Source: Patiria pectinifera
Lineage: Eukaryota; Echinodermata; Asteroidea; Valvatida; Asterinidae
Direction of reading: 5' to 3'
DNA: 64,000 nt
Assembly (NCBI GenBank): GCA_029964075.1
Contig: CM057133.1
Span: 18,562,699-18,626,698, forward strand
Made by a program: the position numbers and the translations under genes. The notes below the pieces were generated by a model, which saw only the letters and a program-made list of their open reading frames with translations, was not told the DNA's origin and searched no databases. This document shows positions 7,957 to 55,582 of the stretch, piece by piece (position 1 is the first letter of the stretch; each line of letters starts with the position of its first letter).

Positions 7957-7982
7957 GATGGTCAACCCCAAAAGACACTTAC

Positions 7983-8040
7983 TATTTGTTTTCTTTGACG
8001 TATGCTTCACTGAGTTGCAAGGGATTCAGACAAACCAGCT
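7983..8040 (-). other. Candidate 5'-leader exon shared by transposase and CIDE-N transcripts
   Basis: On the minus strand a pyrimidine-rich acceptor (ttggtattttcag) ends at 8041 and a strong donor GTAAGT begins at 7982, defining a 58-nt exon. If this donor is used, the next good acceptor on the strand is that of CIDE-N exon 1 at 5362. If the donor is not used, the transcript runs straight into the transposase ATG 26 nt further on. All frames into the CIDE-N exon close upstream of its ATG pair, so it would be noncoding leader. Splice sites only; no transcript evidence. Confidence 0.45.
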
Positions 8041-20466: not shown

Positions 20467-20592
20467 ATCAACCTCATCAACAGAAATGGGTTTCAATTTC
20501 TCCGCATTTCTGCTGTTATGATAGCCCTGCTTGGCATTATGATCTTCCGTTTCTACTCGGTTAAGCCAAAAAAAATGAAGACGTCAAGGTGA
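20467..20592 (+). CDS. Membrane-anchor exon with basic tail, paralogue of the NLR transmembrane exon
   Basis: Acceptor TTTTTGCCTTTTTAG ends at 20466. Read in phase 0 the exon encodes INLINRNGFQFLR, then the hydrophobic ISAVMIALLGIMIFRFY and a basic tail SVKPKKMKTSR with stop TGA at 20590. This is the classic end of a type I membrane protein. The nucleotide sequence and its upstream intron resemble the transmembrane exons at 37975 and 51865. Relative to them it lacks about 5 nt before the hydrophobic part, and its donor GGTAAG has become GGTTAAG, so it now reads through to a stop. If joined to the lectin/EGF/Ig exons it would anchor them with a short tail and no NACHT. Linkage is inferred. In the ancestral phase 1 the exon is not hydrophobic, so it could also be a relic. 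Confidence 0.5.
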   Translation: MNLINRNGFQFLRISAVMIALLGIMIFRFYSVKPKKMKTSR

Positions 20593-27156: not shown

Positions 27157-27167
27157 AGGTTTTCCAC

Positions 27168-28500
<1,333 letters not shown>

Positions 28501-33526: not shown

Positions 33527-34835
33527 CAGTGTTGTAGGACTCGGACTCGGGACTCGGACTCGAGTCCGGACTCGAGTCCTTTTTTCAAGGACTCGGACTT
33601 GGACTCGAGTCCTTTGCTCAAGGACTCGGACTCGGACTCGGACTCGGACCCCAAGGACTCGAGGACTCGGCTTCGAGTCCGGCTCGAGTCCGGCAAAATT
33701 GGGTCTTTTTTAGGTGTTTTATTTCAATTATTTTATGTCTTTCACCTTGATTTGGTTTTGCTGTGGAACCGAATTCCGCAGTTCTGCCGCTCGCAAAAAT
33801 AACTTGCCGATTGATCAATGATCAATTGATTCATTCCAACCTAACCTGGCCAATTGCCCACCAAATAAATCGATTCGTCAGTTATTCAGTTGCTTGCCGA
33901 TGTGTTGGACTTTTGGTTCAATATTACTAACATGGTTGACACAATGACAAGGAGCTATCTCAGCCGCATGAAATCAACGCCATACAATTGGGCTCGAATT
34001 CATACCCATTTAGCGCACGTGGGTGCTTTTACACGCCCAATATGATCAATATCGCCCAACGTGCCGCGTATTGATTGTTTTGTTTAACACTCATGATGCT
34101 TATTGTTTACAAGTTTGTTAGTGTTCAACTGTTCATATATTACAGTAGTCTTTTTTAGTTTCTTTACATATTCTGTAGAATTGATCTGTGGCTCGGTTTC
34201 TGTTGATTGTTTTGTTTAACAGTTATGATCTTTACAAGTTTGTTAGTTAGAACTTTTCATATTACAGAAGACTTTTTCATTTTCTTTTAGTCTTTACATA
34301 TTTCGTAGACTTGATCTGTGGCTCTGCCTTCTGTTGATAGTTTGTTTGACAGTTATGCTATTTACAAGTTTTTTCACCTTTACTGTAAGAAAGGGAAATA
34401 AAGAAAAGCAACAAATGTGAAGAATAATTACTGAAGATCATATGCTAATTGTAATTGTCACTTTACTGTAGTATCTGCGTCAATATCTGTAGGCTTCTAC
34501 GCATACTAAGGTAAAAGTTAATGCAAGTTTTTTTTAATGTACATTATAAACATAATGAATGCATTGCATAGTGCATACAGCCAAAACCATTACCCCTTCT
34601 CTATCACCTGACATTTGATAGTGACATTTTGAAAACGTTAATATAGTATTGGTGAACCGCGACTTGAATTTGATACATAAGGACTCGGACTCGGACTCGA
34701 GTCCTTTTTTCAAGGACTCGGACTCGGACTCGGACATCAAAAATTGACAAGGACTCGGACTCGGACTCGAGTCCTTTGCCCAAGGACTCGGACTCGGACT
34801 CGGACTCGGATGAGGAGGACTCGACTACAACACTG
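33527..34835. mobile_element. Complete non-autonomous hAT-type element, 1309 bp
   Basis: Terminal inverted repeats CAGTGTTGTAG (33527-33537) and CTACAACACTG (34825-34835) are exact. They are flanked by an 8-bp target duplication TAAATCTG (33519-33526 and 34836-34843). CAGTG termini and an 8-bp duplication define the hAT superfamily. Both ends carry subterminal arrays of GGACTC with embedded GGACTCGAGTCC palindromes (33535-33690; 34680-34825). The core has no transposase ORF. Confidence 0.93.
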
Positions 34836-35268: not shown

Positions 35269-38073
35269 ATGCAGGACTCCAATGTACTATGGATGCACAA
35301 TCTGCAACAGGTAATTGCAAACAAAACTAAATATGGTAAATTGGGGGTCAGTATTTGTAAAAAGCAAGTTTTTTCCAACGCTAGTCAGCCGACCGGGTTG
35401 GAAATTGATACAATAATATCACTTTTCTTGAAAATGTCAGCACACCAGGTGCCATGATTTTACAGGATGCTTTAACCTGTCATTCACTAACAGTCCAGTA
35501 AGGTATTTCATGATAATTTGGTAGTTCTGTTTTTTATATTTGCAATTTTTTTTATATTTCCTTTAAAGGCAATTTTTTTCCAAGTACAGACGACAATTGG
35601 AGATGGAATCAAGTACATGAATCATTTTCTCGGCCGTTTTTTTAAAGGATATTTTACTTTATGTTTTTGCTTGTAGGTTCCCCACAACCTCGGCAAAATC
35701 AGCGGGAGCAACAATCCTACCATTGTTGGTGCAGTTGGAGTTAGTTTCACTATTAACAGCTACCAGATGGAGGGACCAGGTAAATATAATCTTGTTTGTT
35801 AAGATGAAAGCAATTTTATATCTAAACAAGTGTAAACTATTTTTTTATTGGGGGTGGGGGTGGTTGTGGTGTATTACAAAAACGTGGACACAAAAGACCG
35901 ATTGTCAGTTCCTCGAGCTAGAGAGTCGCCAATTTCTTTGGTGAAAGCTAATAGTGGATACAATAGGAGGGCGCTATTTATAGTGGTTTTAGTCTTGTAA
36001 CTTGTTCCTGTATGTAACCACGACAATTAGGGTCCCCTTTGTTTGACTCATCCGAAAGGGCATTAACATTAATTTGAACATAAACATTAATTTTGCATGT
36101 ATGCATGAATTAATGGAACAGTGAGCTAATAGGAAAAAAGTAAATAATTGTGGTGCAGAAGCCGCAGACAACATCGCCAGCTCAGCCAGAAGTGTCTATA
36201 GCAAACCCACCAACAAAACCACCAATTAAAATTATCAAAAATGTAATCAACGTCAGAATCAGAGAGCAATGGTTACAGCTCTTGGATGATGTAACAACGT
36301 AACATAGTGCAACATAATCAGACATCCAAGCTTGGGGTATGACGATATTTTCGGGTGCTAGAGGATAATCGTTATGCTTGGCGTGTAGATCGTGCGGGTA
36401 TTTTAAATCCACTTCAAATAAGTAACCTTAAGCGTTAATATTCTTTCTTCGGTAAACAGTTTCGAGGTTGTCCATTTAAAATCTCCGTACGGTAGATATT
36501 GACTCATAGCCCAACCGTACAGATTGTTGGCATCTAGATAAGCGATATAACTCGACGGCTTGTTTGAATCGTAGTCATCGAGATATTGATTATTGGCTTT
36601 GTGATGTCTCATCCCGCTAGAAATACCTCCTCGTTTTGCTTTTTTCAAAAAATAAATGTTTGTCGACGTCTTGCAACAATTCGAGTTTAGCTTTCCGAGT
36701 GTTTCAACAGAGCATCCCACGACAATCCGGGTGCTGTGTAATAGTTTTATGGATCTAGCCCATAGTTTTCTATGCACGGCCTTCTAAAGTTTTCAAATAA
36801 GCCAGCAAGTAATAACGTGTCGGTAGTCACGTACAAGTCGTCGTGATATTCTACTAGATTTTGTATATAAAACTCGTCCCACACTCGTTGAGCTTCAGCG
36901 TTTTGATATTTAAAGCTATAGTCCATCATTTGCAGCCATCCGAAAAGTAACTGCCGAGGCCAATTAAGGCCGAGGCCTTGCACCTCCGAGGCCAAGGCCG
37001 AGGCCATGAAAATCGGCCTCGAGGCCAGCCTCGAGGCCGAGGCCGGCCTCGAGACCTCCAACACTGACTTTCAGGCTCTATATTGGGTGGTACATGTGCA
37101 TAAAGTGTCAACTTTCCAATGCTATTAGTTCCTTAAAATATTGGATTCGTGTTGCTCTGTGGTGCGATCTGAGGCAATTTCTAAAAAGATGGTGGTGTAC
37201 TCATTGCCTGCCTTTATTGCGATGTCATTTTAAAAAAAATAATTGGTTTCGTTTTTATTGGGGGGGGGGGGCATTGCCCCCTTTGCCCCCCCCCCCCCGA
37301 TCCGCCCTTGCACGTAATCAAGTTCGCGATTACTTTAACGAGGATGGTAATTTTTGTAACATATTTTAAAAACTTTCTCTCTTTTTTACCCTGAAGTGTT
37401 GGAAGAAGAAGAGACAAATGATTCAACTGACCAAGAGAATCCTCCAACAGGTAAAGCACAAACCATGAATATATAGGCCTATATACGTCAAAGTCAGGGA
37501 GTGATATTAGTCTTGAGTAACTTAGGTTTGACAACATGCTGTATGGCTACCAAACATGGGCATCGGTCCCCTGACGGGGGGGGGGGGCACCAATGGCGAT
37601 TGCCCTCCCCATCAAATAATTTATTGCGTATAAATTTTAACCCAATGTACCTAAGTTTGCACTGTATTTTTCCCAAATGATGTGAGTGCAACACACACGG
37701 AATTTACACAAAATATGCCAATTGTCGATATGGGCGTAAATGAGCATCATCTATTTGCATACATACATCTTTAACCAGCGCCCTCTATGGTTATATTGTT
37801 GTCCCCCTTTTTTTTTTTTAATTTCTCTTGTTGCTGGTAACCCTCACTCACATGTTGCCAATAAATCGCCTCTGCTGCATTTAAACACATTACGTCATCG
37901 TTCTAAAGGTGACTCGAAAAGTTGGCTTTCGTCTATAAACCTTTCCGACCTGTGTGTTATTTTGCCCTATTTAGATCAACCTGATCGATGGAAATGGGTT
38001 TCATTTTCTTGGTCTTGCCTTTTTGCTGTTGTGATAGTCCTAGCTGGCATTCTGTTCTTCAATTTTAACCAAG
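35269..38073 (+). CDS. 5' exons of NLR gene 1: beta-motif exon, acidic linker, transmembrane exon
   Basis: Exons 35269-35310, 35677-35779, 37397-37450 and 37975-38073 (phases 0,1,1,1 out) lead into the NACHT exon at 41222, giving a predicted 840-residue protein. Exon 1 starts MQDSNVLWMHNLQQ and has no signal peptide. Exon 2 encodes VPHNLGKISGSNNP followed by TIVGAVGVSFTINSY, resembling the GNVTGS exon of gene 2. Exon 3 is an acidic linker (VLEEEETNDSTDQENPPT). Exon 4 encodes DQPDRWKWVSF, then one hydrophobic helix WSCLFAVVIVLAGILFF (residues about 78-97). Exons 3-4 have close counterparts upstream of gene 2. The first two exons are less certain; the acceptor-like CATGCAG at 35274 allows an alternative upstream origin. 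Confidence 0.6.
35330..35535 (+). repeat. Dispersed repeat copy (family A) in intron 1 of NLR gene 1
   Basis: See 3965-4160 and 24060-24260; contains CAGCACACCAGGTGCCATGA and TTACAGGATGCTTTA. Confidence 0.6.
36290..36930 (-). pseudogene. Polinton/Maverick family-B DNA polymerase relic
   Basis: Broken minus-strand frames carry, in order, EYHDDLYVTTDTLLLAGLF, ENFRRPCIENYGLDP, KANNQYLDDYDSNKPSSY, YLDANNLYGWAMSQYLPYG and then DLKYPHDL, HNDYPLAPENI. These are segments of the protein-primed polymerase B of Polinton/Maverick elements. At least two frameshifts and an internal deletion separate the segments. No integrase, capsid or terminal repeats are seen. It lies in an intron of NLR gene 1. Confidence 0.85.
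36945..37066. mobile_element. hAT-type end with GAGGCC subterminal repeats
   Basis: A dense GAGGCC/GGCCTC tract ends in GACCTCCAACACTG at 37053-37066. Its reverse complement CAGTGTTGGAGGTC is a hAT-like terminus. The paralogous position in the second NLR unit (about 50508) has ACTTTCAGGCTCTATATT without the insertion, consistent with insertion after the duplication. The partner terminus is not found; the Polinton relic adjoins it. Confidence 0.6.
37120..37315. repeat. Dispersed repeat copy (family B)
   Basis: Shares GCTCTGTGGTGCGATC and TTTATTGCGATGTCA with 15913-16168. Ends in a G/C-tract and GATCCGCCCTT. Confidence 0.6.
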
Positions 38074-38739
38074 GTAAGCCGAAAATGTTTAAATACAGAT
38101 GAGCTATTTAAGACAATTATAAATCAAGGTTTTTTTTGTATCATAAATGTGTAATGATGCATTTCAGATATAAGCAAAATAAGCCATTATGCTGAACAAC
38201 ATTGATCAAACATCTCCACTCCCACAGTCAACATCAATGTATTTTGTGCACTCCATCTCGTGTACATATTTAACTTTTACTCATTAACATTGGCAGCAAC
38301 AACCTTTCTCCGAATAAAAATATCCAAAAGTATGCCAGCTTCAGAATGCTGAAACCAAAAGAAACAGCTTCAGCATGCTGAAACCAAAAGAAAAGGTTTG
38401 GTTTATCTGCTTTCAGTAATAAACGGGAGAAACATCTTATTGGTCAATAACCGCCCTAAAAAGTCGGTTAAATGTCTGATGGGTGGTCAATATCCACCTA
38501 AGAAGTCGGTTAAATATCTGATGGGCGTTTTGGTATGAAACGTCTTGCAAACACTGGCCTGGCAAAACAGTGGGCGCTTTCCGCCCAAATCCGGGCAGTT
38601 GAAGAAGCCTATATAGGCTTTATTCAACTTGATTGGCAATTTTTGATCTTCTAATGGTTAGATTGGTTAAAGAGGTTGTGGAATGCTGAAAATCGTTTTG
38701 TTTTTTATATTTTTATATTGTAGAGTAGACCCATATATA

Positions 38740-41200
38740 GCATAATGACAAACTCCCATTCTTTTCTAATGTGCGTTTATATGTTTATAAAACTGAAATT
38801 CATCGAGTAATTTGTTGGTCGGCGAGCGCATAATTGAAATCAACAGTCGTCGGGCTCTTCGTAAAATCAGAAAAAGCGTGACGTAATAAACAGGACTCGT
38901 TTATACAACGACTGTTTACTGCTGCCCAACCCGCCCCGTCAGCACGTGTGACTCGCAGTCAAGCAGTGAAAAATCATCATTTTGTAAAAGACTCACGGAG
39001 ATTGATATTCCTTCCCATTGCTTAATTTTTGGATGAGTATATTGAAAAAGGACACGGTGACCTCTGAGCTGTTCTTCCGTATAAATTTGAGCCCCAACTG
39101 CTCGAAAAAGAGACCAGCGAAAACACGGATACTGCAACTGGCCAGCTAAAAACGCCAGGCAACGCGGCTCTGATGAGTGGTACGGTCTGCGACGTTCGGC
39201 GTGAAAAAAAACAGCTGCGTTTTATCCAAGGACTCAAAGTATTATGTTCATGATAACATTTTTAGATGAGCATCAACAGTCCTATCGCAACTTTCTTCGT
39301 GTTTTACAGACAATCTCAAACGTTATTCTGGTAAATATTCAGTCCAAAGAGACGACAAATCGTCAGGTTGTTTTCGAATTTTACGCGTACGGCACGCATA
39401 ACGCATCACGGCGGTGGATATGTGGTCGACCGTGTCCAGAACTAATGTTGTACGGTTAGCAGCGTCGCGGGCCCCGGTCAAGTTCCTTGCGTTGCCTGGT
39501 GCTTTTTATGTATACGTTCGCCACAAAAAAATAGTCCTCTTCTCTTTTCTTTCCTTGTGCATTTTAATCCTTGTTTTAACATCCTGAAACGATAATTACG
39601 AATTTACTTGAATTTTGAAATTGTTAACTTTATTGTTTACCAAAAAAAATCCGTAAAACAACGCCAGGAGACCATGTAAACCTCGGCCTGTAAACGTGGC
39701 TACAAAAAAAAAGTACAATTCATAAATCATAGTCATGCTCCGTTCATAGAACAAAAATCTCTGGACTTACGACATGTTCGGGATCCCGGTTGAAAACAAA
39801 ATTCACTGGTCCCGAAATTTAACGAGCACTATCATTATTTTCAGTACCTCATTAAGACTTTATTCAAGAAACTCCAGTGGCAGAGAATTTGTCATTCGAT
39901 CAAAAGAAGTTCTAGGGAAAATGGAGGGTGAGGCCTGTCACATTATTCAGCACTAACGTAAGGAAAACTACGCGGTCCTTTTTCTACGCATTTACCTTCA
40001 ATTTGTGTGTGACAACGCGTGCGCGCGCGTATGCTGCGCAGATAATGGAGGGTCGAGGATACATTTGAACGGGTCTACGGTTCTTCAAGATTGGCAATGG
40101 ACAAATGGTCCAAAACAGTCTTCCCTATAAATCATTAACAAATCATATCTCTATTATTTCTTGTCCATGCAATTTAAACAAATCTCTTGAGAAAAGAAGA
40201 CTCTTGCCGTACGAAATGTACATATACAGTGCATGATCAGCGCTCTATCCGTTAATTTGGCTGAAATCCGATCTCGTGTTTTCGCACGGTACCCTTCGGA
40301 CAAACTGCATGGCTACGGAGGATTCTTATTCCTCCATGCTGACACCCGGACGGGAAAGCTGGAAATTTGTTGCAAACAAAATGTGGTGTGATTACAACCA
40401 GCGACTGACACAATTATAGGCATATAGGTTTGCCTTGGCCTAGTGCGTTCGGTACCCGTACACGTATCAACAACGAATTATTTTGAAATTCCAACACCGT
40501 TTACCGGTGTCAAAATCTACGGTCCCAGCGGCCGGGCCAGCGGCACAAGTACACCCGTGAATTTCCGGCCAGCTTTATATAGCGCGTGTCACGGTGATGC
40601 GATGTGCATATGTGACGTGAACGACCGAACGATGTTGATGTACGCAGACATTTCTTACTATGGTTGGCCGTTAGGGCAAACACAAAAGAATGATCCCCGA
40701 TCTATAAATAAAATGATGTGTAACTATCAAAACACTGAATAACAATAGAAAGTACCAAAAAAGACAATGGAGATATCTTCCTATTAAATTCTGAACTTGC
40801 CCATTAGAATTTCAGGGGTAAAAGCTGTTGCCAACTACGGTTGAATTTATGGAGCATGTGGCTGCCCATACAAAATGTCGCTCAGAGTAATTGTAAACAA
40901 AGTCATGTCGTTGCGCGGAGTGATTTGCAAAAAGTTTCGCTGGAACGACGCTGCATCGGGAGTCCTGTTTATTACGTCAGATTTACTATGTTTTGTTTGC
41001 TGCCCCCAACGACGACTTTTACACAAATTGCACGTTCGGGCCGAAACAGGACCTGAAAAACAGCTCTCAAAAGTACCTTTTGTATTCATTTCATGACAGA
41101 AACAATAGTAGTTTTTATTTCATCACACCCTAGGCTACATATACCCGAAAAATGAAGGAAATGTCTTGGAGCATTCCACAACCTCTTTAAGTTCATGTTT
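38740..41200. other. Intron DNA present only in NLR gene 1
   Basis: About 2.5 kb between the shared intron block (to about 38680) and the NACHT exon, with no counterpart in gene 2. Includes an inverted pair AACGCCAGGCAACGC (near 39148) and GCGTTGCCTGG (39489). No ORF is recognised. Acquisition of this DNA changed the NACHT exon acceptor from the one used in gene 2. Confidence 0.5.
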
Positions 41201-41221
41201 TATGTGTGCATATAATTTCAG

Positions 41222-43446
41222 GGCCTGTGCCGCCCACGCCTTCAGTCCTCACTGATCTGGAATACTGCCAGCAGCAGCTTTTGCAGTTCTACAAGGATAC
41301 AACAAGCACCATCCCTTCACACCCCTTGCTGACCTCCAGGACCGTGGATATTGATGAGTTCTTTGTTAATTTGGAACTCAATAGGGAAGTACCGGGAAAG
41401 ATAATGCCTGGTGAACGCGTGAAACTAACAAGGGAGGAAATGATGTTGGACAACGTACAAACTGTACCGTTAGAGACGTGGGAAGATTTGTTTCAACCAG
41501 AAATTGTAAAAGAGTCCAAAATAATTCTGTCAGGTGGGGCCGGATATGGAAAAACCACAATTTTAGGGAAAATTGCAAATGCTTGGTCGGTAAAAGGTAA
41601 ACTCGCGAAATTCAAGCTCGTGTTCGTGTTGAAGTTGAGGCACATGCGGAATTCGAGTTGTATCATAGATGCAATATTTGACCAAATTTTACCGAAGGAT
41701 ACCGATCTGACAAAATCTAAACTGAAAGACATTATCGCCAATAACCAAGCCGACATAACATTCTTACTGGACGGATTAGATGAGATTCCATCTAATGTTC
41801 TGAAATCTAAGAAGGGTGTGTACACAATCAAAGATGTATTGCACAACAGAGTATTGGTCAATAGCTACGTGTTGGTAACAACGCGACCTCACATGATTGA
41901 GTATGTTCAGAATAGTTACAAGAATTTCGCCAAGGTTAAGATTTTAGGCTTTACAATTGAAAACAGAAACAAATTCATCGAGTCCCACTTTACCGACAAT
42001 ATCACGTCAGGTCAGAGTTTAATTGCACGTTTAGACTCCACCCCATCTTTTCACAGATTGACAGAGATTCCTATCGTTTCCCAAATGGTGTGCATCATTT
42101 GGAGGAATCAGGATTCTTTGCCACATAACATCACAGCGCTCTACTCAGAGTTCGCAGAGGTTCTTGTCAAACGCAGAATTAAAGGTGACCATCACTTGCG
42201 GCAACGAATGAACACTGTCTTGAACGACCTCGGTCGTATTGCATTAAATGGACTGCTAGATTCAACAGACAAACGACTCATTTTCGACAGAGAGGAATTT
42301 TCTGAATGTGCCTCATCTTTGGATGACGGTTGTGAATTTGGTTTCGTGCAGAGGGAAAATTTCACAAGCCGTTTTGATATCAAAGAATTGGTCACCTTTT
42401 ACCACTTGTCCTTTCAAGAATACTCTGCTGCGTATTACCTTGTTTATTTGTATAAATATGATATTGATACTTTCCGCCAAAGATTAGAGCAGATTGATTC
42501 CCATAATCTTCTTGAAATGAAAATGCTGCTCCGGTTTTGTTGTGGTCAGTCAACCAAAGCTGCTCGTGTGATTCTAAAACATGTACAAACACTGCACAAT
42601 GCAGAAAGCGATACATTGTTGCGCTTGTTGCTTTGTGAATCTGGTTCAAAGCAGTTGGCCAAGGAACTGGACAAACAGTGGTATCTGCAATGTGATACCC
42701 AAGAGGATCTGATGGCATTGGATTTTTACTTACGATCAGTTCCCAACACGTCACTGGAAGGCGTTCATTTTGACTTAAGGTGTGGTACGTATGACGATAT
42801 TACACTTGCACTAGGTTTCGTTGTGACTATAAACCTGAATATAGTTGATGCACTTACGGTTCAGTATACTATGTCTGAACAAGGGGACAGAGAGATTCGT
42901 CATTTAGAAGAATTACTTGGATCAGTAGAAGAAACTATTTTTTCCCGGCTGACATTAATGGTGTATATCAACAAAAAGTCAGTGTTTTCTCCGGAGGTAA
43001 TTTCAGAAAGAATGATACGTCTGTCCCAAAATGAATTTCAGATACTTGGTGTAACGATGGTTGAACTATCTCATTATTCTGTGATTCAGCTGGTCGATGC
43101 TTTGAAAGACTGGAGGTTAAATTGGTTTTCGCTACGTAATATCGACATGCATGGTCACGTGAGTACATTAGCTCCTTTAGTCAAAGGCTCGCTGAAGTAT
43201 CTTCGTTGCGACCCATGTTATTTGGATGATGATGACGTCATAGACCTCATCAGAATCCTTCCAGCTGGTCATGTTTTGAAAAAGCTGGTTGTCGGTGGAA
43301 ATGCGTTCAGCTTGGATGGAGTAAAAACATTAGCAAATCATCTCCGGAGCTTTTCTCAGCTGCTCTATTTCAGACTACATAGCTCAAGCCTCAATCAAAC
43401 ACTCGTTGACCAGGTGGTTCATCAGATCCTACCTCAGACTATATAA
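41222..43446 (+). CDS. NACHT-LRR exon of NLR gene 1
   Basis: One large exon, acceptor TATAATTTCAG ending at 41221, phase 1, open to the TAA at 43446 (741 codons). Order: a pre-NACHT segment (DLEYCQQQLLQFY, VDIDEFFVNLELNR), Walker A GGAGYGKTT (about residues 204-212 of the predicted protein), Walker B FLLDGLDEI (about 280-288), sensor TTRPH, a helical middle region, then C-terminal LRR-type repeats (LKKLVVGGNAFSLDGVKTLANHL). Kinase 1a, Walker B and sensor residues are all present, so ATP binding and oligomerisation are predicted. This is the invertebrate NLR-type innate immune architecture. The 5' exons add a membrane segment. The LRR region is short and diverges sharply from gene 2. Confidence 0.95.
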
Positions 43447-46400
43447 TGTATACATAACTTTAATACTCAGATATCCCGACGGGTAGTCACGTCTAAACAG
43501 TTCAAAAAGACACAAATAATATTCAAATTTTGACAAATTGAATTAACATTAGATTGTAACACTAGTAACCCTTTTAAACGCTATAATGCACAGATTTAAC
43601 GTTTAACTACTTATTAAATGCTGTTTTTATATCGTCAACGTCAAGCGGTCGCCTTATAAACCTTGCGGTGAAACTCGCGGTGAAACTAAACATTAATTCT
43701 CATGTGCGGGATAGGTTAAAAAGCTTTCGTAAGTAATTTCTGAGGACATTTAATATTAGCTGACAGATACGGTAAATCGGGTGTAACATTTTGTTTTTCC
43801 AAATATTATTTGTAATTTTTTATTTAATTCAAGGCCAACAAAACAGCTGTTTAAACACGTTTATAAACACAATCTGCGAATGTAACTGAATAGTGTTTCG
43901 AACAAAGGCGGTCAATTATTGAATGGTGCTCAGATAATGCAGATATTCGTCTTTTTGTGAGATTTGATTTTGAAGCTTGTAGCGGATATATTTGCTATTT
44001 TGTCGGTTGCCGTGTGCAACATTTGGTGAATTGTATTTTAGTGTATTAGAGTGTGAAAATGGCCAAACAGTCTTACCCCATTTTCTTGTGTATTTTAAAG
44101 ACATATAATAATTGATAAGTGTACATGTTGCCTTCATCTGTTATGATGTCTGAGCTTTCTAAATGATGAGACTGTGGACACATTGCGTGTGAGAGGGTAG
44201 GAGGGACCCGGGTTTGTGACGATCACTAAAGGACTGTATAGTGTGAATCATAAATCTGAGTGAATTGGACTAAATCACATCGGGTGTAATAAGCACAGAT
44301 GTTTTAATCTTAACCCAACACACCCAACCCCTATACCCCCTACAAAAAAAACACAAAGATATCAATTCCCAGCCGTGGCGTGAGGGGACATCCAACCCAA
44401 CTCCTTCAGTTGTTGGAAATTAAAACAAATTTTGAATGCATCCCCAATAAAAAAACACATATCCCAATGCATGCAGGCCTATTAAACTATCTAATGAACA
44501 GAAAAGTACTTTGGAGATCTCAATTTTGGGATCTCAGGTTCCATCTCCGTAACATCCCAATTCTCATCCCCACCCCCAGATTACATTTATGTTCAAACCA
44601 TACCACAAATAATAATTCAACGTTAGATTGTTTTATTCGTTGAATAATATGTCTCGGTTTTATAAAGTGAGGACTTATGTGCATGCTCGATGTATACATT
44701 TAATGAAAGAATAAAATATAGAGTTGATTGGGGTTTTATTTAAAACAATATTCATGTTTCGAAATTCAAACATCTCTTCGTTAAATTGCAGTCATTCTTT
44801 AATTTTTTTGGAAAAATGGGGGAAAAAAAATCTAAAACTGTCCACCTATTACCTCCCGCCACTAAAAATAAACCCGTATATAAGATCGTTGCCAAAATAT
44901 ACAAGTAAAACTACAAATCTTAAACTAATGCGTTACAGTATTAATGTGTTAAAAGGCATCGTTATTAACGCACTGAAGGGATTTAGGTATGGTATCAGCA
45001 AAAGAAAATAATGGCAGAAAACATCACTGTTTGATATATGCATGCTCGATATACATACATGCACGTCAACCGAACAGTAAACTGAAAGCCAAAACAAGAT
45101 CACCTGAGGCCGTGAACTTATTTGCGTGCTCGATGTATCAGCTCACTGATATCAGCTCGAAGTATCAGCTCACTGATGGCCAAAACAAAATCACTTTTGG
45201 CCGTATATACATGCTTAATGTGCTTATTGGCATGCTCGATGTGTCACCTTACTGATGGCAAAAACTATCCTTTTTTTGCCGTATGAATGCACGATCGATG
45301 TACTTATTTGCATGCTCGATATATCAGCTCAATGACGGTCAAAAACAAAATCACTTTTGGCCGAATATGCACGCTCGATGTACTTTTAAATATTTGTCCA
45401 TAAAGTTTTAGTCGTACCCCGTGCTCTTAAAAAAAAAAATAGATCTAGTTTTCTCCTCACGAAGTTTCAATGTTTGATTTGTTTAAACGTTTTGTTAAAA
45501 AAAAAAATCGTCATCAGCACAACGAACTGAGACTCAGTTGCGCGTGAATGCGCTGTACGCGCGCGTATCAACAGAACCGGAATATTTTAGGTTTCACGAA
45601 CTGACGTCTTCCACAGTGCGGCACTTTTAGAGCGCGACCGCACATTTTTGGTTTCACGAACTGACACTAACTTTAAATTAAAACAATGTCCTGTTAATTG
45701 TTAATGAAGCCACACAAGACAAGTATTCTAACTTCCTATTTTGCGCCGGTGTAATGTGCGCGCACACTCCCGGGTGAAACCAAATTGGTTGGTTATGTGG
45801 TTTTCACGAACGGACACCCCATTGCGCGTGAGTGTCAGTTCGTGGTGTCGATGACGAATTATTGCTTGGCAGTCAAACATTCACACTTTCACGAAATAAT
45901 TCAATAATCAGGTTTTGATGGACTCTTTTCGTTCAATTTCTCATTCAAAAGTGAATCTTTTTTTATATTGCAGTATAATAACTTAATAATATATTGCTGG
46001 GATAATAGAAATTTGACAAACAAATCTATTTTTTCGAGGTGAAACTCGAAACTAAATATTTGAGGAAATAAACATATATAAAATTGTTAATTGATGACCT
46101 CCTCTCACTAAACGAAACTCCATATACGTACTAGCCTTTCAAAAATACAAAAATGAAAATCATAAGTCTCAATAGAATGCTATACGGTTCGCATTGAAAC
46201 GTATTTGCTATTCCCTCTACATAATCAAGCCGTTATATCGGGCCCCCAGTCAGTTCACTTTGGGCAAACAAAAATCACTGTTTGCCGCATATATGGAAAC
46301 TACTATTTTTATATTTATATTTGATGGTTTCTTAATAAGCGCTATTACTCAAAGGCCCTTGTATGGTGCTTTTTGTTAATGTAATTCTTGAAAATACAAC

Positions 46401-49143
46401 TTGTTGTGCCATTCTCCCTCATTTTCTATTTTTATGCTGCTATTTTCATGGGTATTATGGTGCTTTTTTTTTGCTTGTTTAATGTTGGTTTCCATATTCA
46501 TGAGTAAAATTGTGATGTCAATCAGGCAAAAACCTCAATGTTACAGCTATTTCTGCTTCAAAGTTGTCCGAATTTTGGAAAATTTTCAGATTTTTTTTGT
46601 TTGGTGATTTGTTGTTTTGTTAGTACACAGCAGTAGGCCAAAGAGCAAACTTTTCTCGCAAATACACGGTTTTTTTTCAATGAGTACATTTTGGGGTTCC
46701 AAATTTTAACAGAAACGCCTAAACTGAACAATGTCTTCATAAAATGACATCACAGCAGCAGCGCCAAGGAACAGTTTAGAAAGAAATTCAAGGAAAATAT
46801 TTAATATCTAAAGAAGTGCACGTTTCAATAACTTAAATCACTCTCTAAATTCCAAAGAGTGAAATTAAGGACTAGACGTTTTAGAGAGAAAATCACTCTC
46901 ATGTTTAATTGAAATAGTCTGAAGAAAAAAAAAGAATCACTTCAGACGAAGCTCAAGTGAAAACTCGATCTTTACCTTAGAAGGAATTTTACTCTAAAAC
47001 GTCTAGTCCCTAGTTTCCGACTGTGGGAGTGCATCTTCACTCGAATGGAGTGAATTTTCACTCATTGGAATTTAGAGAGCAGTAAGGGATGTCAAATAGT
47101 TTTCATACATTTGTGACAATCTTGAAATTAGGGATTGGAAGCTCTTCAGTTGTAGTATACGTGCAGCGAAATTATTCAGTATAAGTGAATACATGAAGTG
47201 ATGTTACTTCAGTCTTCAGGAAATAGCGAAAAATCACAATTTATTTACAAAATGATAATACAATTAATCAGTAAGATTAAACTAAGATAAATTCCAATTA
47301 CTTTCAGTTCATGAAATAATGATAAGGATTCATTCAAATGATTAAACAATAGTCACGTTTTCCCGCTGAAATTTTAGCGGGGTCAGCCATATTAGATTTC
47401 AACGTTTCAAGAATAAAACTTAGTTAAAATACCATCAAACAAGGATTTAAGGAAATACAAACAGAAATGGGTAGTCAAGGAATTGTGATGTCATGTATAG
47501 GTCATTGATGGAATGATTAAAAACCAAAAAAATAGACAGTATTAATTACCTGCATACGTGAAGACGAATGTACATAAAGTGATGTTACTTCAGTCTTCGG
47601 GAAATAACGAATGAGCTAGTGCCCGATATCAGACGTTGGGGGCGCTAGGTTAATTTGAATTTACATGTAAATAAGGTTGAACCAAAAAATAGCGGGGGTG
47701 TCTTTTTATAACCGTCAGACATTTAAGAGGAGTTGAAAGTTGCACAAAATATGTTCTTTAGAAAAAAAATTGCATAAACCCTATAACAAAACAAACTCGC
47801 AAAGATCAATAACTTCAAAATCCATCCATAACAAGTAAAATGGTCCTAAAATTAAGACTCCACTAGGACATTAGGTTTAAGAGATTTTCCTACAGCACCT
47901 AATAGATCATTAGAAATAACTTATATTCCTTCTTTGCCACCTATGTCATCTGTATCGTAATTGCTGTGTATATTTAACATTTTTACTGGAGATCTTGCGA
48001 GGTAAATATGTTAGTGGGCTTGCCGTAGGCACGCTATCACTCAACCCCCATCACCACAACCCCTCCCCCGTTGCCTGAAAGCTACATCCGTCCCTGCAAC
48101 CCACAACACCAAACCACAACCGCACCCCAAAGCGCAAACCCATAACACCAACCTACTATACCACCCTAACCCACAACACCTTCCCAGACGCAAACTATCA
48201 TCATCATTGACCTTCGCATGTTTTCATTAAGCTTCATCATGTTATCATTGACCTTCCGGGCATATAAAATGGTATTTCAAAAACCGTGAACGGCAATCGC
48301 AACAAAATATGGTAGACTTTGATCCATCGTTGGAGTAGACTTTGACCTGATGTTTTTGATGTGATAAAATACTATGCTAAATACAGGAAAAAACGTTTTT
48401 CTGTAAACAAAATGCTTGAAAGGTCGCAGTCCAGACTCAGCACATGTATAACACAACACTGTACATGTATAACAGTACAGTCTACACGCGAGTTACAATT
48501 TGGTTGTTAGCCACTCAGTAAATAGGAGTGCGATTGTGACGGCTGAATCTTCTTTGATGTACATCGACGGATAAATCACCCAATTGACACAGAAGCCTTA
48601 CCGACCACGCGTCCATTGAGAGACTGTTAAGTATGTTGTGTAGGTACTTCATACTAACTTGTTGTTAAAAATCTACTTATAAGAAACTAGAAGGTAAGAA
48701 CAATTCCCCTATCAACAAAAATGAACATTAACGCATGAGTTCATTGTTTTTGAAACAATTAAAGTCATGGCATTAAAAGTAGAATGTCAGCTTTAGGTCT
48801 GTAAGATAGTACTTTCCTGAATTGGAGCCGTCGCCTATCAAATCCGTACAAGAAAACTTTGAAATTGATGGATTTTATCCTCTATGCAGCATGTTTTTTT
48901 CTTTGATAATTAGTAAGTAGAGTAGATCTTATTTCTTATTAAATGCACAAGACGCATCTATCAGCAACTTCGTGAACACATGCCTACACATAAAACTAAA
49001 TTATGCTTGAGATGCGATAAGATACGAATGACAGCTATCTTAGTTTTAGCAAAGTTTGTGAATGAGATAGAATCCCTTTTTTCTCATGGTTTGAAGCTGC
49101 GAAACATTTCAATCGCGGTGTGTCACTAGAATCGAAGATAATC
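43447..49143. repeat. 3' flank of NLR unit 1, duplicated block up to about 48785
   Basis: From about 43460 to 48785 this matches 55640-60846 with small indels and a few percent divergence by eye. It contains no supported exon. Shared landmarks are GCATGCTCGATGTA repeats (44680-45390), CACGAACTGACAC inverted words (45590-45850), a 240-bp hairpin element (46841-47079) and an ACAACCC-rich tract (48029-48190). From 48786 to 49143 is single-copy sequence leading to exon 1 of gene 2. Confidence 0.85.
46841..47079. mobile_element. Hairpin MITE-like element, unit 1 copy
   Basis: CTCTCTAAATTCCAA at 46841 and TTGGAATTTAGAGAG ending at 47079 are inverted. Inside, GACTAGACGTTTTAGAG pairs with CTCTAAAACGTCTAGTC. 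Another copy lies at about 58924-59160 in the duplicate. No ORF. Confidence 0.75.
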
Positions 49144-51963
49144 ATGGCGTCAAGCAGGAAAGATAGTCATACAATAAAGGACGATGACCAAGACAGCAGA
49201 GACGTCAGGGAGCCACATCCAGCAGGTAAATCATAAGTCTTACGTAATACATCATTTCTTTCCCTATAATTGATTACCTCACTCTTATTTCCGTTAAAGG
49301 GACCACGACATGAATTTTACTTGGGAACGCATTTTGTGCCACTTGCTACTCCTCTTAAATGAATGAAAACTATTTGACATCCCTTTTTGTTCATTTTATT
49401 AAAAAGTACCCTTCTTTAAACGTTTAATTTCGCAAGCTATTCCTGACAAATATGGGCGCTGGATATATTGCAGTGATGTCATTTCAGGAAGACACTGTTC
49501 AGTTAAGAGGTTTTTCTGTTAAAATTCTGAATATTTGTGAGATACCTTTGCTCATTGGCCTACTGTCATGTTCTGAAATAACAAAAAAATCACAAAAGAG
49601 AAGAAACTTTACGACAGCAAACTCTGGCAAAGTTTTAGCTAAAATATCTGTAACAGTAAGGTTTCTGCCTGAAATTACGTCACACTTTTGATTATGCAAT
49701 TTCAAATTCTTATTAGCATAAAATCAAGAAGACAAAATACCCTAAAAATGCCAAAAGGAAACTAAAAATAAGGTTAAATGGCACAAAAATGTACATTTAC
49801 AAGGACTGCAGTTAAAGAAATACATTAAATTGCCCTTTAATCCACAATCAACCGTAATCACCCCAAGAATCATTCATATTGGAATTTTATCTTGGTATTT
49901 CTCAAGAAAGCATGATGAGAAAATCACTTGCAGATGGGTAAAATGCATTTTACTTCCAACCTTTTACTTCCGGCGTTTTCGTTCGTAGGTCTCCTTGTTC
50001 AAATTTGTTTTCACTTCACGAACTTGCGTGAGAATGAAATGTAAAATGACGCACAGATTTACCTACCTACATCAGATGGGTTCTAGATTTAGTCAGGCTG
50101 GCTTGAAAGCAGTCCTCATTATTTTGTTTTGTAAATGCAGATGAGTCCTTCAAGTTTATATTTAATAACAGTAAATCCTTCAAGACATGTTAGTCTCTTA
50201 TTTAAAGTTACGTTTCACCCGATGACCACTCACAATTAGTTAATGAATTTCAATCTGTGTACGAGTGCACCCAGTTTTTCTAGGTATAGGTATACATGTA
50301 ATTTAAGTTTTTATAAGTGAAATTTTGGCACGATATTCCTCTTTCATGTCAAGCGGTTTTTCAGTTTCCATCAACTGAGATGATAGTACAGATTTTACAA
50401 AGAGTATTTTCGAGGAAGAAATCAATGTACCCAAAGTACTTGCAAATTTGACACTTTTTGCATGTTAATTTTTCCCATTCAAGGGTTCCGAAAGCGCGCC
50501 AATAGGGGTGAACTTTCAGGCTCTATATTGAGTGGTATATGTGCATAAAGTGTAAACTTTCCAATGCTATGTTACAATGGTTCCTATAGGGCATGGTAGG
50601 TCAAAGAACATGAAACCGAGAACCAAATTGAATACAAACGTACCTCAACTTGTAAAATCTACTCTCAGAGCATCATGTGCAAGATGAAGTCTCCTCAGCA
50701 TCATCCAGTCCACTATCCTCCAGTGATGCACCGACCTCGTCTGATGCACAGATGAACCCAACAACTTCACGGGCTGGCGCTGGTATAGCTAATCTGGAGT
50801 CCAGAGGCCTTGTCATTGCTGGCAATGTGACTGGGTCACATTTCCATTTCCACGGGAAATCCTCCAAAGAAGGTATACAAGGTATACCTTCAAACGTCCT
50901 GAAATTAATTTGACAATTCAAATAATTTGAATGGATTGAATTCATCCAAATCTTGAGGTATTTACGATTGTGTTTTGGATTGTGATTTTGTTTAACCTTG
51001 CTGTCGCTTGCAATCTCTTTTGAAATAATTAACACCGCGAAGAGCTGAAAGAACAAGAACCAGAAGACTCAACTGACCATGGGAATCCGCCAACACAGAA
51101 TCCTTCCGTAGAAGGTAAAATCACGCTTCATATCCTTTAATTAGTCGTCCTGAAATCAATTTGACTGTTCAAACAATTGATATGATTGAATTTCACGATC
51201 TTAATATTCACGTATTCAAGTTCACTATTACTTTAATGAGGATGGTAATTTTTGTAACATATTTAAAAAACTTTCTCTCTTTTTTACCCTGAAGTGTTGG
51301 AAGAAGAAGAGACAAAGGATTCAACTGACCAAGAGAATCCTCCAATAGGTAAAGCACAAACCATGAATATGTAGGTCTATATACGTCAAAGTCAGCTGAG
51401 TGATATTAGTCTTGAGTAACTTAGGTTTGACAACATGCTGTATGGCACCCCAACATGGGCACCGGTCCCTTGGCAGGGGGGGGGGGGGCGCCAATGGCGA
51501 TTGCCCTCCCCACCAAATAATTCTTTGCTTATAGATTTGAACCCAATGTACCTAGATTTGCATTGTATTTTTCCCAAATGATGTGAGTGCAACACCCTTT
51601 TTACGGAATTTGCACAATATATGCCAATTGCGGATTGTGGGCGTAAATGAGCATAGCTATTTGCATACATACATCTTTGACCAGCGCCCTCTATGGTTAT
51701 ATTGTTATCTTTTTTTCTAATTGCTGGTCACCCTCACTCCCATGTTGCCAACAAATTGCCTCTGCTGCATTTAAGCACATTACATCATCGTTCTAAAGGT
51801 GACCCGAAAGGTTGGTTTTCGTCTATAAACCTTTCCGACCTTTGTGTTATTTTGCCCTATTTAGATCAACCTGATCGATGGAAATGGGATTCATTTTCTT
51901 GGTCTTGCCTTTTTGCTGCTGTGGTAGTCCTGGTTGGCATTCTGTTCTGCATTTTTCCCCCAG
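49144..51963 (+). CDS. 5' exons of NLR gene 2: start, GNVTGS exon, acidic linkers, transmembrane exon
   Basis: Exons 49144-49225, 50669-50881 (or 50872), 51043-51114, 51295-51348 and 51865-51963, all ending in phase 1, lead into the NACHT exon at 53313 for a predicted 929 residues. Exon 1 begins MASSRKDSHTIKDDDQ and lacks a signal peptide. Exon 2 is Ser/Thr-rich, then NLESRGLVIAGNVTGSHFHF. Exons 3-4 are acidic linkers (EQEPEDSTDHGNPPTQ; LEEEETKDSTDQENPP). Exon 5 gives DQPDRWKWDSF and the hydrophobic WSCLFAAVVVLVGILFCIF (about residues 152-171). Phase agreement across five introns strongly supports one gene. With no signal peptide the helix would act as an internal signal-anchor; the orientation is unknown. 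Confidence 0.7.
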
Positions 51964-52361
51964 GTAAGCCGAAAATGTTTAAATACAGATGAACTATTTA
52001 AGACAATTATAAATCAAGGGTTTTTTAATCATAAATGTGTAATGATGCATTTCAGATATAAGCAAAACAAGTCATTATGCTGAACAACATTGATCAAACA
52101 TCTCCACTCCCACGGTTAGCATGAAGGCATTTTTGTGCACTTCACCTCGTGAACATATTTAACTTTTACTCTTAAACATTGGCAGCATTCAACAACAACC
52201 TTTCTCCGAATCAAAATATCCAAAAGTATGCCAGCTTCAGAATACAGAAATAGGTTGATTTGCTTTCAGTGATAGACGGGAGAAACATCTTTTTGATCAT
52301 TATACTCGGACTCACTAATAAATTAAACCCAAAACATCATTATTTGTGTGTCTTCCCACAG

Positions 52362-52561
52362 CTTCAAGCAATTTATTGAAACCTATTTGCCAGATACCGA
52401 ATTTGTTTGGGCAAGCTGGCATCAGGAATAATATATATGGGCAACCAGGCCCAAGCATATCAACCACATTAATCAATGGACACCCAGGTCCAATGTACAT
52501 CGATTACCATTTGGCACCCAGGCCAATTAATGGATGCATGGGCACCCAGGCCCAGGAGTAA
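52362..52561 (+). CDS. Candidate alternative terminal exon of NLR gene 2 (no NACHT)
   Basis: Acceptor GTGTCTTCCCACAG ends at 52361, and the phase-1 frame is open for 66 codons to TAA at 52559. It contains NLFGQAGIRNNIYGQPGPSI, NGHPGPMYIDYHLAPRP and GCMGTQAQ, with repeated Gly/His-Pro-Gly-Pro units. It lies between the transmembrane exon and the NACHT exon and has the phase needed to follow the former. Use would give a membrane protein with a short tail instead of NACHT-LRR. No counterpart is visible in gene 1. Confidence 0.35.
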
Positions 52562-52954
52562 TCACGCTGGAACCAAATTAGCTGGTCAACACTTTGGGGA
52601 CAGCCATGGTTGTGCTATGGAAGATACAGCACACCCAAACCCCTGGGTACATAAGAGAGAGAGAGTGGCTGACCCCTTACAAAGTTCACATCACAGTGTA
52701 ACACTCATCAATACCCGTAACAATATCAACTGGTGACAATAACCACAACAATAATGATACATGTCCAATCATGTATGTATTAGGAGATGGCTGTCTTGGA
52801 ATCCTGTTAAGAGAAGGCAGGAGCTGGGGTGGTGGTGGGCAAATTGATCCAGCTTGCTCAAAGTGCTGTGACAGAATGACCCACACAGTACATGCAGTAC
52901 ATGTACATGCATTGTTTCACTGTTGCATATCATTTGCGCTTCAATCTATCTGCT

Positions 52955-53030
52955 GATTGGTCAAAACTCTTGGCTGTGATTGGTAAAAACTCTTGGCTGT
53001 GATTGGTAAAAACTCTTGGCTGTGATTGGT
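52955..53030. repeat. Short tandem repeat, 23-bp units carrying CCAAT-box complements
   Basis: GATTGGT occurs at 52955, 52978, 53001 and 53024 within TTGGCTGTGATTGGTAAAAAC-type units. Three to four copies, about 280 bp before the NACHT exon of gene 2. Confidence 0.85.
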
Positions 53031-53312
53031 CCGATCTCTTTTAACCATGAGAAATAGCAGACCTGTGTTTGCCAAGTATAAAGGATTTTGTCAAAATACA
53101 TGCATTGTGACAAAATCTCATGCCCGCCCTAAGAAGTCGGTTAAACGTCTGATGAAAGCGCCCACGGTTTTGCCAGGGCCTGCATGGCAAAACCTTGGGC
53201 GCTTTCCGTCGAAATCAGGACAGTTGAAGAAGCTTTTATAGGCGTTCTTCAACTTGATTAGATTCAATATATGATCTGATAAGGGTTCACATTTTATTTG
53301 TACGTTTTTCAG

Positions 53313-55582
53313 AAATACCAGCATCATTACGTGTACAGAGAGAGGAGACTGTGCCCACGCCTAAAGTCCTTAATGACCTGGAATATTGCCAGCTGCAGCT
53401 TGTGAAGTTCTACAAGGATGCAGCAAGCACCATCCCGTCACACCCCTTGCTACCCACCTGGAACGTGGATATTGATGAGTTTTTTGTTAATTTGGAACTC
53501 AATAGGGAAGTACCGGGAAAGATAATGCCTGGTGAACGCGTGAAACTATCAAGGGAGGAAATTATGTTGGACAAAGTACAAACTGTACCGTTAGAGACGT
53601 GGGAAGATTTGTTTAAACCAGAAATTGTAAAAGAGTCCAAAATCATTCTGTCAGGTGGGGCCGGATATGGAAAAACCACAATTTTAGGGAAAATTGCAAA
53701 TGCTTGGTCGGTAAAGGGTAAACTCGCGAAATTCAAGCTCGTGTTCGTGTTGAAGTTGAGGCACATGCGGAATTCGAGTTGTATCATAGATGCAATATTT
53801 GACCAGATTTTACCGAAGGATACCGATCTGACAAAATCTAAAATGAAAGACATTATCGCCCATAACCAAGCCGACATAACATTCTTACTGGACGGATTAG
53901 ATGAGATTCCATCTAATGTTCTGAAATCTAAGAAGGGTGTGTACACAATCAAAGATGTATTGCAAAACAGAGTATTGGTCAATAGCTATGTGTTGGTAAC
54001 AACGCGACCTCACATGATTGAGTATGTTCAGAATAGTTACAAGAATTTCGCCAAGGTTAAGATTTTAGGCTTTACAATTGAAAACAGAAACAAATTCATC
54101 GAGTCCCACTTTACCGACAATATCACGTCAGGTGAGAGTTTAATTGCACGTTTAGACTCCATCCCATCTTTTCACAGATTGACAGAGATTCCTATCGTTT
54201 CCCAAATGGTGTGCATCATTTGGAGGAATCAGGATTCTTTGCCACATAACATCACAGCGCTCTACTCAGAGTTCGCAGAGGTTCTTGTCAAACGCAGAAT
54301 TAAAGGTGACCATCACTTGCGGCAACGAATGAACACTGTCTTGAACGACCTCGGTCGTATTGCATTAAATGGACTGCTAGATTCAACAGACAAACGACTC
54401 ATTTTCGACAGAGAGGAATTTTCTGAATGTGCCTCATCTTTGGATGACGGTTGTGAATTTGGTTTCGTGCAGAGGGAATATTTCACAAGCCGTTTTGATA
54501 TCAAAGAATTGGTCACCTTTTACCACTTGTCCTTTCAAGAATACTCTGCTGCGTATTACCTTGTTTATTTGTATAAATATGATATTGATACTTTCCGCCA
54601 AAGATTAGAGCAGATTGATTCCCATAATCTTCTTGAAATGAAAATGCTGCTCCGGTTTTGTTGTGGTCAGTCAACCAAAGCTGCTCGTGTGATTCTAAAA
54701 CATGTACAAACACTGCACAATGCAGAAAGCGATACATTGTTGCGCTTGTTGCTTTGTGAATCTGGTTCAAAGCAGTTGGCCAAGGAACTGGACAAACAGT
54801 GGTATCTGCAATGTGATACCCAAGAGGATCTGATGGCATTGGATTTTTACTTACGATCAGTTCCCAACACGTCACTGGAAGGCGTTCATTTTGACTTAAG
54901 GTGTGGTACGTATGACGATATTACACTTGCACTAGGTTTCGTTGTGACTATAAACCTGAATATAGTTGATGCACTTACGGTTCAGTATACTATGTCTGAA
55001 CAAGGGGACAGAGAGATTCGTCATTTAGAAGAATTACTTGGATCAGTAGAAGAAACTATTTTTTCCCGGCTGACATTAATGGTGTATATCAACAAAAAGT
55101 CAGTGTTTTCTCCGGAGGTAATTTCAGAAAGAATGATACGTCTGTCCCAAAATGAATTTCAGATACTTGGTGTAACGATGGTTGAACTATCTCATTATTC
55201 TGTCATGCAGGTGGTCGATGCTTTGAAAGACTGCAAGTTAGATGGGTTTGGGTTACGTAATATCGACATGCATGGTCACGTGAGTACATTAGCTCCTTTA
55301 GTCACAGCCTCGCTGAAGTATCTTGGTTGCGAGCCATGTTATTTGAATGATGATGATGTCATAGACTTCATTAGAATCCTTCCAACTGGTCATGTTTTGA
55401 AAGCGCTGTATGTCGGTGGAAATGCATTCAGTTTGGATGGAGTAAAAACATTAGCAAATCATCTCCGGAGCTTTCATCAGCTGGACTATTTCCCACTACA
55501 AAGCTCTGGCCTCGATCAAACACTCGTTGACCAGGTGGTTCATCAGATCCTACCTCAACTTAAAGATGCAACTTCGAGTTAA
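53313..55582 (+). CDS. NACHT-LRR exon of NLR gene 2
   Basis: Phase-1 exon with acceptor TACGTTTTTCAG, open to TAA at 55582 (756 codons from the acceptor). Order as in gene 1: pre-NACHT segment, Walker A GGAGYGKTT (about residues 288-296 of the predicted protein), Walker B FLLDGLDEI (about 363-371), sensor TTRPH, middle helical region, and LRR-type C-terminus (LKALYVGGNAFSLDGVKTLANHL) ending KDATSS. The exon starts 12 codons earlier than in gene 1 (EIPASLRVQREE). NACHT differs from gene 1 at only a handful of residues, while the last ~120 residues differ at about 20 positions. Predicted ATP-binding, membrane-anchored NLR-type immune receptor. Confidence 0.95.

What the first reader, a model, noticed from the sequence alone, without database searches (positions are those of the whole stretch)
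35269..55582. Two NLR genes predicted to be membrane-anchored (TM exon spliced to NACHT-LRR)
In both copies, exons encoding an acidic linker and then a single ~18-residue hydrophobic helix precede the NACHT exon in the same splice phase (phase 1 at every junction). Canonical animal NLRs are cytosolic; a built-in helix between an N-terminal segment and NACHT would create a membrane-tethered NLR. Exon borders and phases are seen directly; the joined protein is inferred.
Basis: partly seen in the sequence, partly recalled or inferred. Interest (0 to 1): 0.85.

Follow-up and report, generated by a model that had tools for sequence, protein, structure and literature searches.

The report
Membrane-helix exon in NLR gene cluster
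A tandem family of immune-receptor (NLR) genes in this animal carries a small exon that encodes a membrane-spanning helix just before the receptor's ATP-switch domain, so a sensor that is usually cytosolic can probably be made as a membrane-anchored protein; similar membrane NLRs are already known from a sea cucumber.

Summary
The helix exon is not a chance ORF. Of 12 closely related NACHT places in a C5 cluster, 10 have an intact helix exon upstream on the same strand (8 read in DNA, 2 by translated hit only). Two sequence types keep phase, near-equal length and hydrophobicity although residues drift (dN/dS 0.57-2.81, mostly about 1). Two copies (m2, m3) keep an open NACHT but have a broken helix exon, so the helix is dispensable. 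The exon is symmetric, so skipping it would give a cytosolic NLR. One related C22 gene has no helix. Gene B has a complete exon set; gene A has a different 5' end and no confirmed start exon. LRRs are only weakly supported. No transcript data were available: the splice join is inferred. Membrane NLRs are already reported in a sea cucumber (Ig-TM-NACHT, tested) and proposed in sponges, so this is a new variant of a known kind. A short beta-type motif exon that recurs before NACHT in this genome deserves its own look.

The parts
35677..35779 (+). Gene A: candidate N-terminal exon with a beta-type motif (VPHNLGKISGSNNPTIVGAVGVSFTINSYQMEGP), donor phase 1
   Evidence: 50 other places match at E up to 1; 20 of 50 lie within 12 kb of a NACHT listed, 19 of these upstream of it on the same strand. 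A's start exon and the incoming phase were not resolved.
37397..37450 (+). Gene A acidic linker exon, 54 nt, phase 1-1
   Evidence: paralogous linker exons
37975..38073 (+). Gene A helix exon, 99 nt, phase 1-1
38667..41190 (.). Insert with 32-nt inverted ends (84% complementary) that begin and end in TTAA, inside gene A's helix-NACHT intron; absent from paralogue C
41222..43446 (+). Gene A NACHT exon, open to the stop codon
   Evidence: Pfam NACHT 2.2e-23; acceptor like paralogue C's
49144..49225 (+). Gene B first coding exon (MASSRKDSHTIKDDDQDSRDVREPHPA), donor phase 1
   Evidence: paralogues
50669..50872 (+). Gene B exon 2, 204 nt, ends ...GLVIAGNVTGSHFHFHGKSSKE
51043..51114 (+). Gene B extra acidic linker exon, 72 nt (borders read)
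51295..51348 (+). Gene B acidic linker exon, 54 nt
51865..51963 (+). Gene B helix exon, 99 nt, phase 1-1
53313..55582 (+). Gene B NACHT exon to the stop codon; Walker A GGAGYGKTT and Walker B FLLDGLDE (motif names recalled)
   Evidence: Pfam NACHT 7e-24; NLRP3 2.1e-18 and NLRC4 8.5e-17 among PDB sequences
20467..20559 (+). Decayed helix-exon relic, 93 nt: AG and GT remain and no stop lies inside, but indels have shifted the frame so that the helix is lost; no NACHT between it and gene A

Best explanation
A C5 cluster of about 12 NLR genes carries, between a short N-terminal region and the NACHT exon, one or more small acidic linker exons and a 32- or 33-codon exon for a single hydrophobic helix, joined by phase-1 borders where read. 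When the helix exon is spliced in, the receptor should be anchored in a membrane by one helix, with an acidic, low-complexity N-terminal segment on one side and the NACHT switch on the other (cytosolic NACHT most likely, since it needs ATP). When it is skipped, the frame is kept and the receptor should be soluble. Shown: the exons, phases, hydrophobicity and their presence in most paralogues. Inferred: the splice join, membrane insertion, orientation, and signalling by NACHT oligomerisation at the membrane.
For: Exact exon borders and phases in A and B. Intact helix exon on the same strand upstream of NACHT in A, B, C, m1, D, G, F and H, re-checked, plus translated hits for I and J: 10 of the 12 NACHT places of the cluster. 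Two diverged helix types (A to D 43% DNA identity) keep phase, length (99 nt in seven, 96 in F), open frame and KD19 2.49-2.83 in seven of the eight read copies, 2.09 in F. Substitution simulations give an open, hydrophobic exon in 7.1% (A to m1), 5.6% (A to G), 0.3% (A to D) and 3.5% (H to D) of runs. NACHT acceptors fit phase 1 in 9 of 9 copies checked (H, I, J not read). The A and B NACHT exons have no ATG before the conserved pre-NACHT block, so they need upstream exons. NACHT dN/dS is 0.22-0.55 in the 28 pairs of 8 copies.
Against: No transcript evidence. Helix dN/dS is 0.57-2.81 (14 of 15 pairs defined, most near 1), so residue-level purifying selection is not shown; the simulations are not independent, model no indels and leave out the four copies that did decay. 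D was found by eye and F and H with looser cut-offs than the main scan. m2 and m3 keep an open NACHT with a broken helix exon, while C, D, F, I and J keep an intact helix before a truncated or stop-bearing NACHT, so retention of the two is not coupled. No signal-peptide or topology program was run; the charge rule gives only +1.
Confidence: 0.68

Rival explanations
1. The helix exon is a fading relic: it once anchored the ancestor, is now mostly skipped, and the working NLRs are cytosolic.
For: Helix dN/dS near 1 in most pairs. Broken in m2 and m3, whose NACHT frames are open, and in relics at window 20467 and C19:31024207.
Against: 8 read copies of two diverged types keep frame, splice sites and hydrophobicity (F least, KD19 2.09), and 2 more are open by translated hit. 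Simulations make this unlikely for the diverged copies.
Confidence: 0.17
2. The helix exon is a cassette whose inclusion is regulated, so each intact gene makes both a membrane-anchored and a soluble receptor.
For: Symmetric phase 1-1 exon of 99 nt (96 nt in F) beside symmetric linker exons; loss of the exon is tolerated in m2 and m3. Compatible with the best explanation, so its odds are not exclusive of it.
Against: No isoform data. The exons read here are all phase 1, so symmetry alone says little.
Confidence: 0.3
3. The helix is not a membrane anchor but a buried or amphipathic oligomerisation or effector helix that inserts in membranes only after activation, as plant CNL alpha-1 helices do (recalled).
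For: It lies N-terminal to the NACHT switch, in the effector position.
Against: KD19 2.5-2.8 over 19 uncharged residues fits a constitutive anchor better.
Confidence: 0.1
4. The helix belongs to separate short transcripts and NACHT to others.
For: About 0.5 to 10 kb lie between helix and NACHT, and the orphan copy on C19 has no match to A's NACHT exon in the 40 kb read.
Against: Order and strand are kept in 10 of 12 places, the A and B NACHT exons lack their own start before the conserved block, and the C19 copy has lost its acceptor AG and frame.
Confidence: 0.06

Closest known systems
AjNLRC4 of the sea cucumber Apostichopus japonicus (PMC8699970; abstract, outline and passages read)
   Same: NACHT protein with a transmembrane helix N-terminal to NACHT; predicted TM at 483-503, NACHT 600-757 intracellular; seen at the coelomocyte membrane.
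   Different: It has Ig domains outside, a second TM at 776-795 and no LRR. Here the N-terminus is short and acidic, no Ig was found (Pfam on B's N-terminal 240 aa: 0 families), and the helix is a symmetric exon broken in some paralogues.
AjNLR-new (PMC13133943; passages read, among them part of the abstract)
   Same: TM plus NACHT in an echinoderm NLR-related protein.
   Different: An Ig domain between two TMs; NACHT reported as extracellular.
Putative membrane-bound sponge NLRs (Dysidea avara PMC12909245, passages read; it credits Amphimedon, Yuen et al. 2014, which is not held here)
   Same: TM domains noted in NLR architectures.
   Different: Computational statement only; position and exon structure not seen by me.
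NLRP3 / NLRC4
   Same: Best solved-structure sequence relatives of the NACHT exon. NLRP3 also meets membranes through the segment just before NACHT (polybasic region, recalled).
   Different: No membrane-spanning helix in NLRP3 (recalled); no PYD or CARD was found in gene B's N-terminus.
Sea-urchin NLRs with N-terminal 2A-like signal sequences (PMC4981915, passages read)
   Same: NLRs linked to the secretory pathway by an N-terminal element.
   Different: No 2A-like D(V/I)ExNPGP in the 239 kb scanned here, six frames; the helix is internal.

Membership tests
NLR (NACHT STAND ATPase receptor) | NACHT domain with NLR-type helical and winged-helix regions | tested here: met
   Pfam NACHT 2.2e-23 and 7e-24; NLRC4_HD 5.4e-05 and 7.5e-05, just under its cut-off. 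PDB sequence hits to NLRP3/NLRC4 span residues 50-469.
NLR (NACHT STAND ATPase receptor) | C-terminal leucine-rich repeats | tested here: inconclusive
   No Pfam LRR; NLRP3 LRR region only at E 0.19; structure prediction switched off.
NLR (NACHT STAND ATPase receptor) | N-terminal effector domain (CARD, PYD, DEATH and the like) | tested here: not met
   0 Pfam families on B's N-terminal 240 aa. The membership claim here is 'NACHT family, NLR-type', not CARD/PYD NLR.
Membrane-anchored NLR (AjNLRC4 kind) | Transmembrane helix N-terminal to NACHT in the same protein | tested here: inconclusive
   Helix exon in frame with NACHT by phase; joined transcript not testable.
Membrane-anchored NLR (AjNLRC4 kind) | Extracellular Ig domains | tested here: not met
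   None found in B's N-terminus; gene A's 5' end unresolved.
Membrane-anchored NLR (AjNLRC4 kind) | Location at the cell membrane | not testable with these tools
   Needs protein work.

The most novel reading that the evidence does not exclude
A single-chain membrane signalosome: a short beta-type motif, recurrent before NACHT in this genome's NLRs and a candidate animal signalling amyloid other than RHIM, is joined through acidic linkers to a skippable membrane helix and then to a NACHT switch. Activation would cluster the motif at a membrane, and splicing of the helix exon would choose membrane or cytosolic action. The amyloid part is a resemblance recalled from bacterial NLR motifs and was not tested.
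Probability: 0.07. Interest if true: 0.82.

Novelty: new variant of a known kind. Interest (0 to 1): 0.48.

Why it matters
NLRs are taught as cytosolic. Sea-cucumber work shows that some echinoderm NACHT proteins sit in the membrane. Here a tandem family carries the anchor as one small, symmetric exon, intact in most copies and broken in two with an open NACHT. That makes the step between cytosolic and membrane NLR a single-exon change that can be tested within one genome, by comparing m2 and m3 with A, B, G, H and m1.

Tried and rejected
Chance hydrophobic ORF: rejected. Helix exon as mobile DNA: disfavoured; apart from the cluster I found only the relics at window 20467 and C19 and weak hits on C5 15.2 Mb, C803 and C11 (short queries, candidates capped). 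2A-like signal sequence: motif absent in the regions scanned. Naming the species by COX1: no match; I suspect an echinoderm from memory (613 Mb, about 22 large contigs) but did not show it. Structure prediction: switched off. Papers looked into by passages that did not change the picture: PMC9646362, PMC11797021, PMC5485727, PMC12261475, PMC8086366.
Full report
CHECK. The helices score KD19 2.49 (A) and 2.74 (B). The two genes are a recent tandem duplicate (NACHT exons 94% identical in protein; 89.5% DNA identity over the 1061 bp around linker and helix), so their agreement alone proves little. I therefore looked for diverged copies.

FAMILY. The window lies at C5:18562699-18626698 of a 613.5-Mb genome in which 101 NACHT places were scored of 439 candidates (a lower bound). 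A search with A's first 191 NACHT-exon residues (151 matches, 150 of 417 candidates scored) listed 12 close places in C5:18.43-18.78 Mb at 64-100% identity; the next subfamilies (C5 12.1 Mb, C560, C18, C22) are at 58% or less. I label the 12: G, D, H, m1, m2, m3, A, B, C, F, I, J. NACHT open frames: A 751, B 774, G 812, H 852, m1 824, m2 793, m3 778 residues. Truncated or stopped: C 306, D 331, F 219, I 222, J with five stops.

HELIX EXONS. Intact and read in DNA: A, B, C, m1, D (found by eye), G, F and H (found with looser cut-offs); all eight re-checked for AG, GT, length and frame. Open by translated hit only: I and J. Broken: m3 (stop codon in the helix) and m2 (61 nt, not a multiple of three). 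Two orphan relics: window 20467 (helix lost by frame change) and C19:31024207 (acceptor and frame lost). So 10 of 12 places have an intact helix exon upstream on the same strand. Both open: A, B, G, H, m1 (5 of 12). NACHT open, helix broken: m2, m3. Helix open, NACHT broken: C, D, F, I, J. There are two types: DQ-type (A, B, C, G, m1) and GQRH...AVE-type (D, F, H and, by hit, I, J). A and D share 43% DNA in this exon although their NACHT dS is only 0.32, so the two helix types are older than, or were exchanged independently of, the NACHT exons.

SELECTION. Helix dN/dS is 0.57-2.81 in 14 of 15 pairs, most near 1, one undefined; NACHT N-terminal dN/dS is 0.22-0.55 in 28 pairs and exon 2 dN/dS is 0.33-1.12 in 21 pairs. 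Thus helix residues drift, but length (99 nt; 96 in F), phase, open frame and hydrophobicity (KD19 2.49-2.83; F 2.09) persist in the intact copies. Substitution-only simulation gives an open and hydrophobic exon in 7.1% (A to m1), 5.6% (A to G), 0.3% (A to D) and 3.5% (H to D) of runs. The runs are not independent and ignore indels and the copies that decayed.

CHANCE. In 239 kb, both strands, strict criteria gave 4 symmetric phase-1 helix exons (A, B, C, m1) and 0 in phases 0 and 2. Relaxing the pyrimidine tract gave 8 phase-1 rows, all helix exons of this family (D added, plus upstream alternative acceptors for A, B and C), 3 phase-0 rows at one place (34247-34384) and 0 in phase 2. Looser donors gave 10, 15 and 5 rows in phases 0, 1 and 2. 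The criteria were set after seeing the exons.

GENE ANATOMY. B has a complete set: exon 1 (49144-49225), exon 2 (50669-50872), two acidic linkers, helix, NACHT; exons 1 and 2 recur in paralogues. A lacks B-like exons 1-3; homology to B starts at 37067. Instead A has an exon at 35677-35779 with 50 other matching places at E up to 1. Of these, 20 lie within 12 kb of a NACHT listed: 19 upstream of it on the same strand, 1 only downstream of it on the same strand, none on the opposite strand only (NLR genes often run in same-strand arrays, which favours this). A's own start exon is unresolved. A's helix-NACHT intron carries an insert with 32-nt inverted ends at a TTAA site, absent from C; its splice acceptor is like C's. 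NACHT acceptors read in phase 1 in 9 of 9 copies checked. In one C22 NLR the motif exon is followed after about 0.8 kb by NACHT, with no 19-residue stretch of KD19 above 2.0 in the three sense frames of the 951 bp read, so the helix is not general to this genome's NLRs; only one such gene was read.

DOMAINS. The NACHT exon matches NLRP3 (2.1e-18) and NLRC4 (8.5e-17) chains. LRRs: no Pfam match, E 0.19 to NLRP3's LRR. B's N-terminus has no Pfam match.

MECHANISM. Most likely the helix exon anchors the receptor in a membrane before activation and NACHT oligomerises there; skipping or loss of the exon frees it. Shown: exons, phases, presence in paralogues. Inferred: join, insertion, orientation (charge difference +1 only), signalling.

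KNOWN. Membrane NLRs exist in a sea cucumber (PMC8699970; PMC13133943) and are proposed in sponges (PMC12909245). A search for 'transmembrane NLR' and five like phrases found two papers, one of them a sea-cucumber paper and one on plants; other searches. I saw no report of a helix as a symmetric exon in an NLR tandem family in these listings, but most papers were seen as listings only and the library lacks most subscription journals.

Noticed in passing
35677-35779: A short exon with a beta-type motif (..SGSNNPTIVGAVGVSFTINSY..) has 50 other matching places at E up to 1, 19 of 50 upstream of a listed NACHT on the same strand within 12 kb. It may be a common N-terminal module of this genome's NLRs. 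By recalled resemblance to bacterial NLR motifs it could be a signalling amyloid; a review asks whether RHIM is the only one in animals (PMC7889193, passages read).
   Followed up: partly
50669-50872: Gene B exon 2 ends ..GLVIAGNVTGSHFHFHGKSSKE; all 11 hits in the genome (itself and three weak ones included) lie on C5 18.43-18.79 Mb. Possibly a diverged form of the same motif.
   Followed up: partly
38667-41190: About 2.5-kb insert with 32-nt inverted ends and TTAA at both sides in gene A's intron, absent in paralogue C.
   Followed up: partly
36403-37070: Minus-strand ORFs that look like a protein-primed DNA polymerase fragment of a Polinton-type element (recognised from memory, translation).
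   Followed up: no
35325-35566: Part of a high-copy interspersed repeat: 38 of the 39 other places scored match this part at 84-89%; 3335 candidates.
   Followed up: no
5488-8025: 845-codon minus-strand ORF, transposase-like in look; not searched.
   Followed up: no
26555-28176: Reverse-transcriptase-like and GIY-YIG-like ORFs, Penelope-like in look (recalled).
   Followed up: no
17887-18370 and 19642-19776: Tandem arrays of 21- and 41-bp units rich in CGCCGCGG.
   Followed up: no
L016 (paralogue D) and L025 (paralogue C): C and D both lack about 45 NACHT residues (near 279-325 of A) with a frame shift at about the same place; shared ancestry or gene conversion is possible.
   Followed up: no
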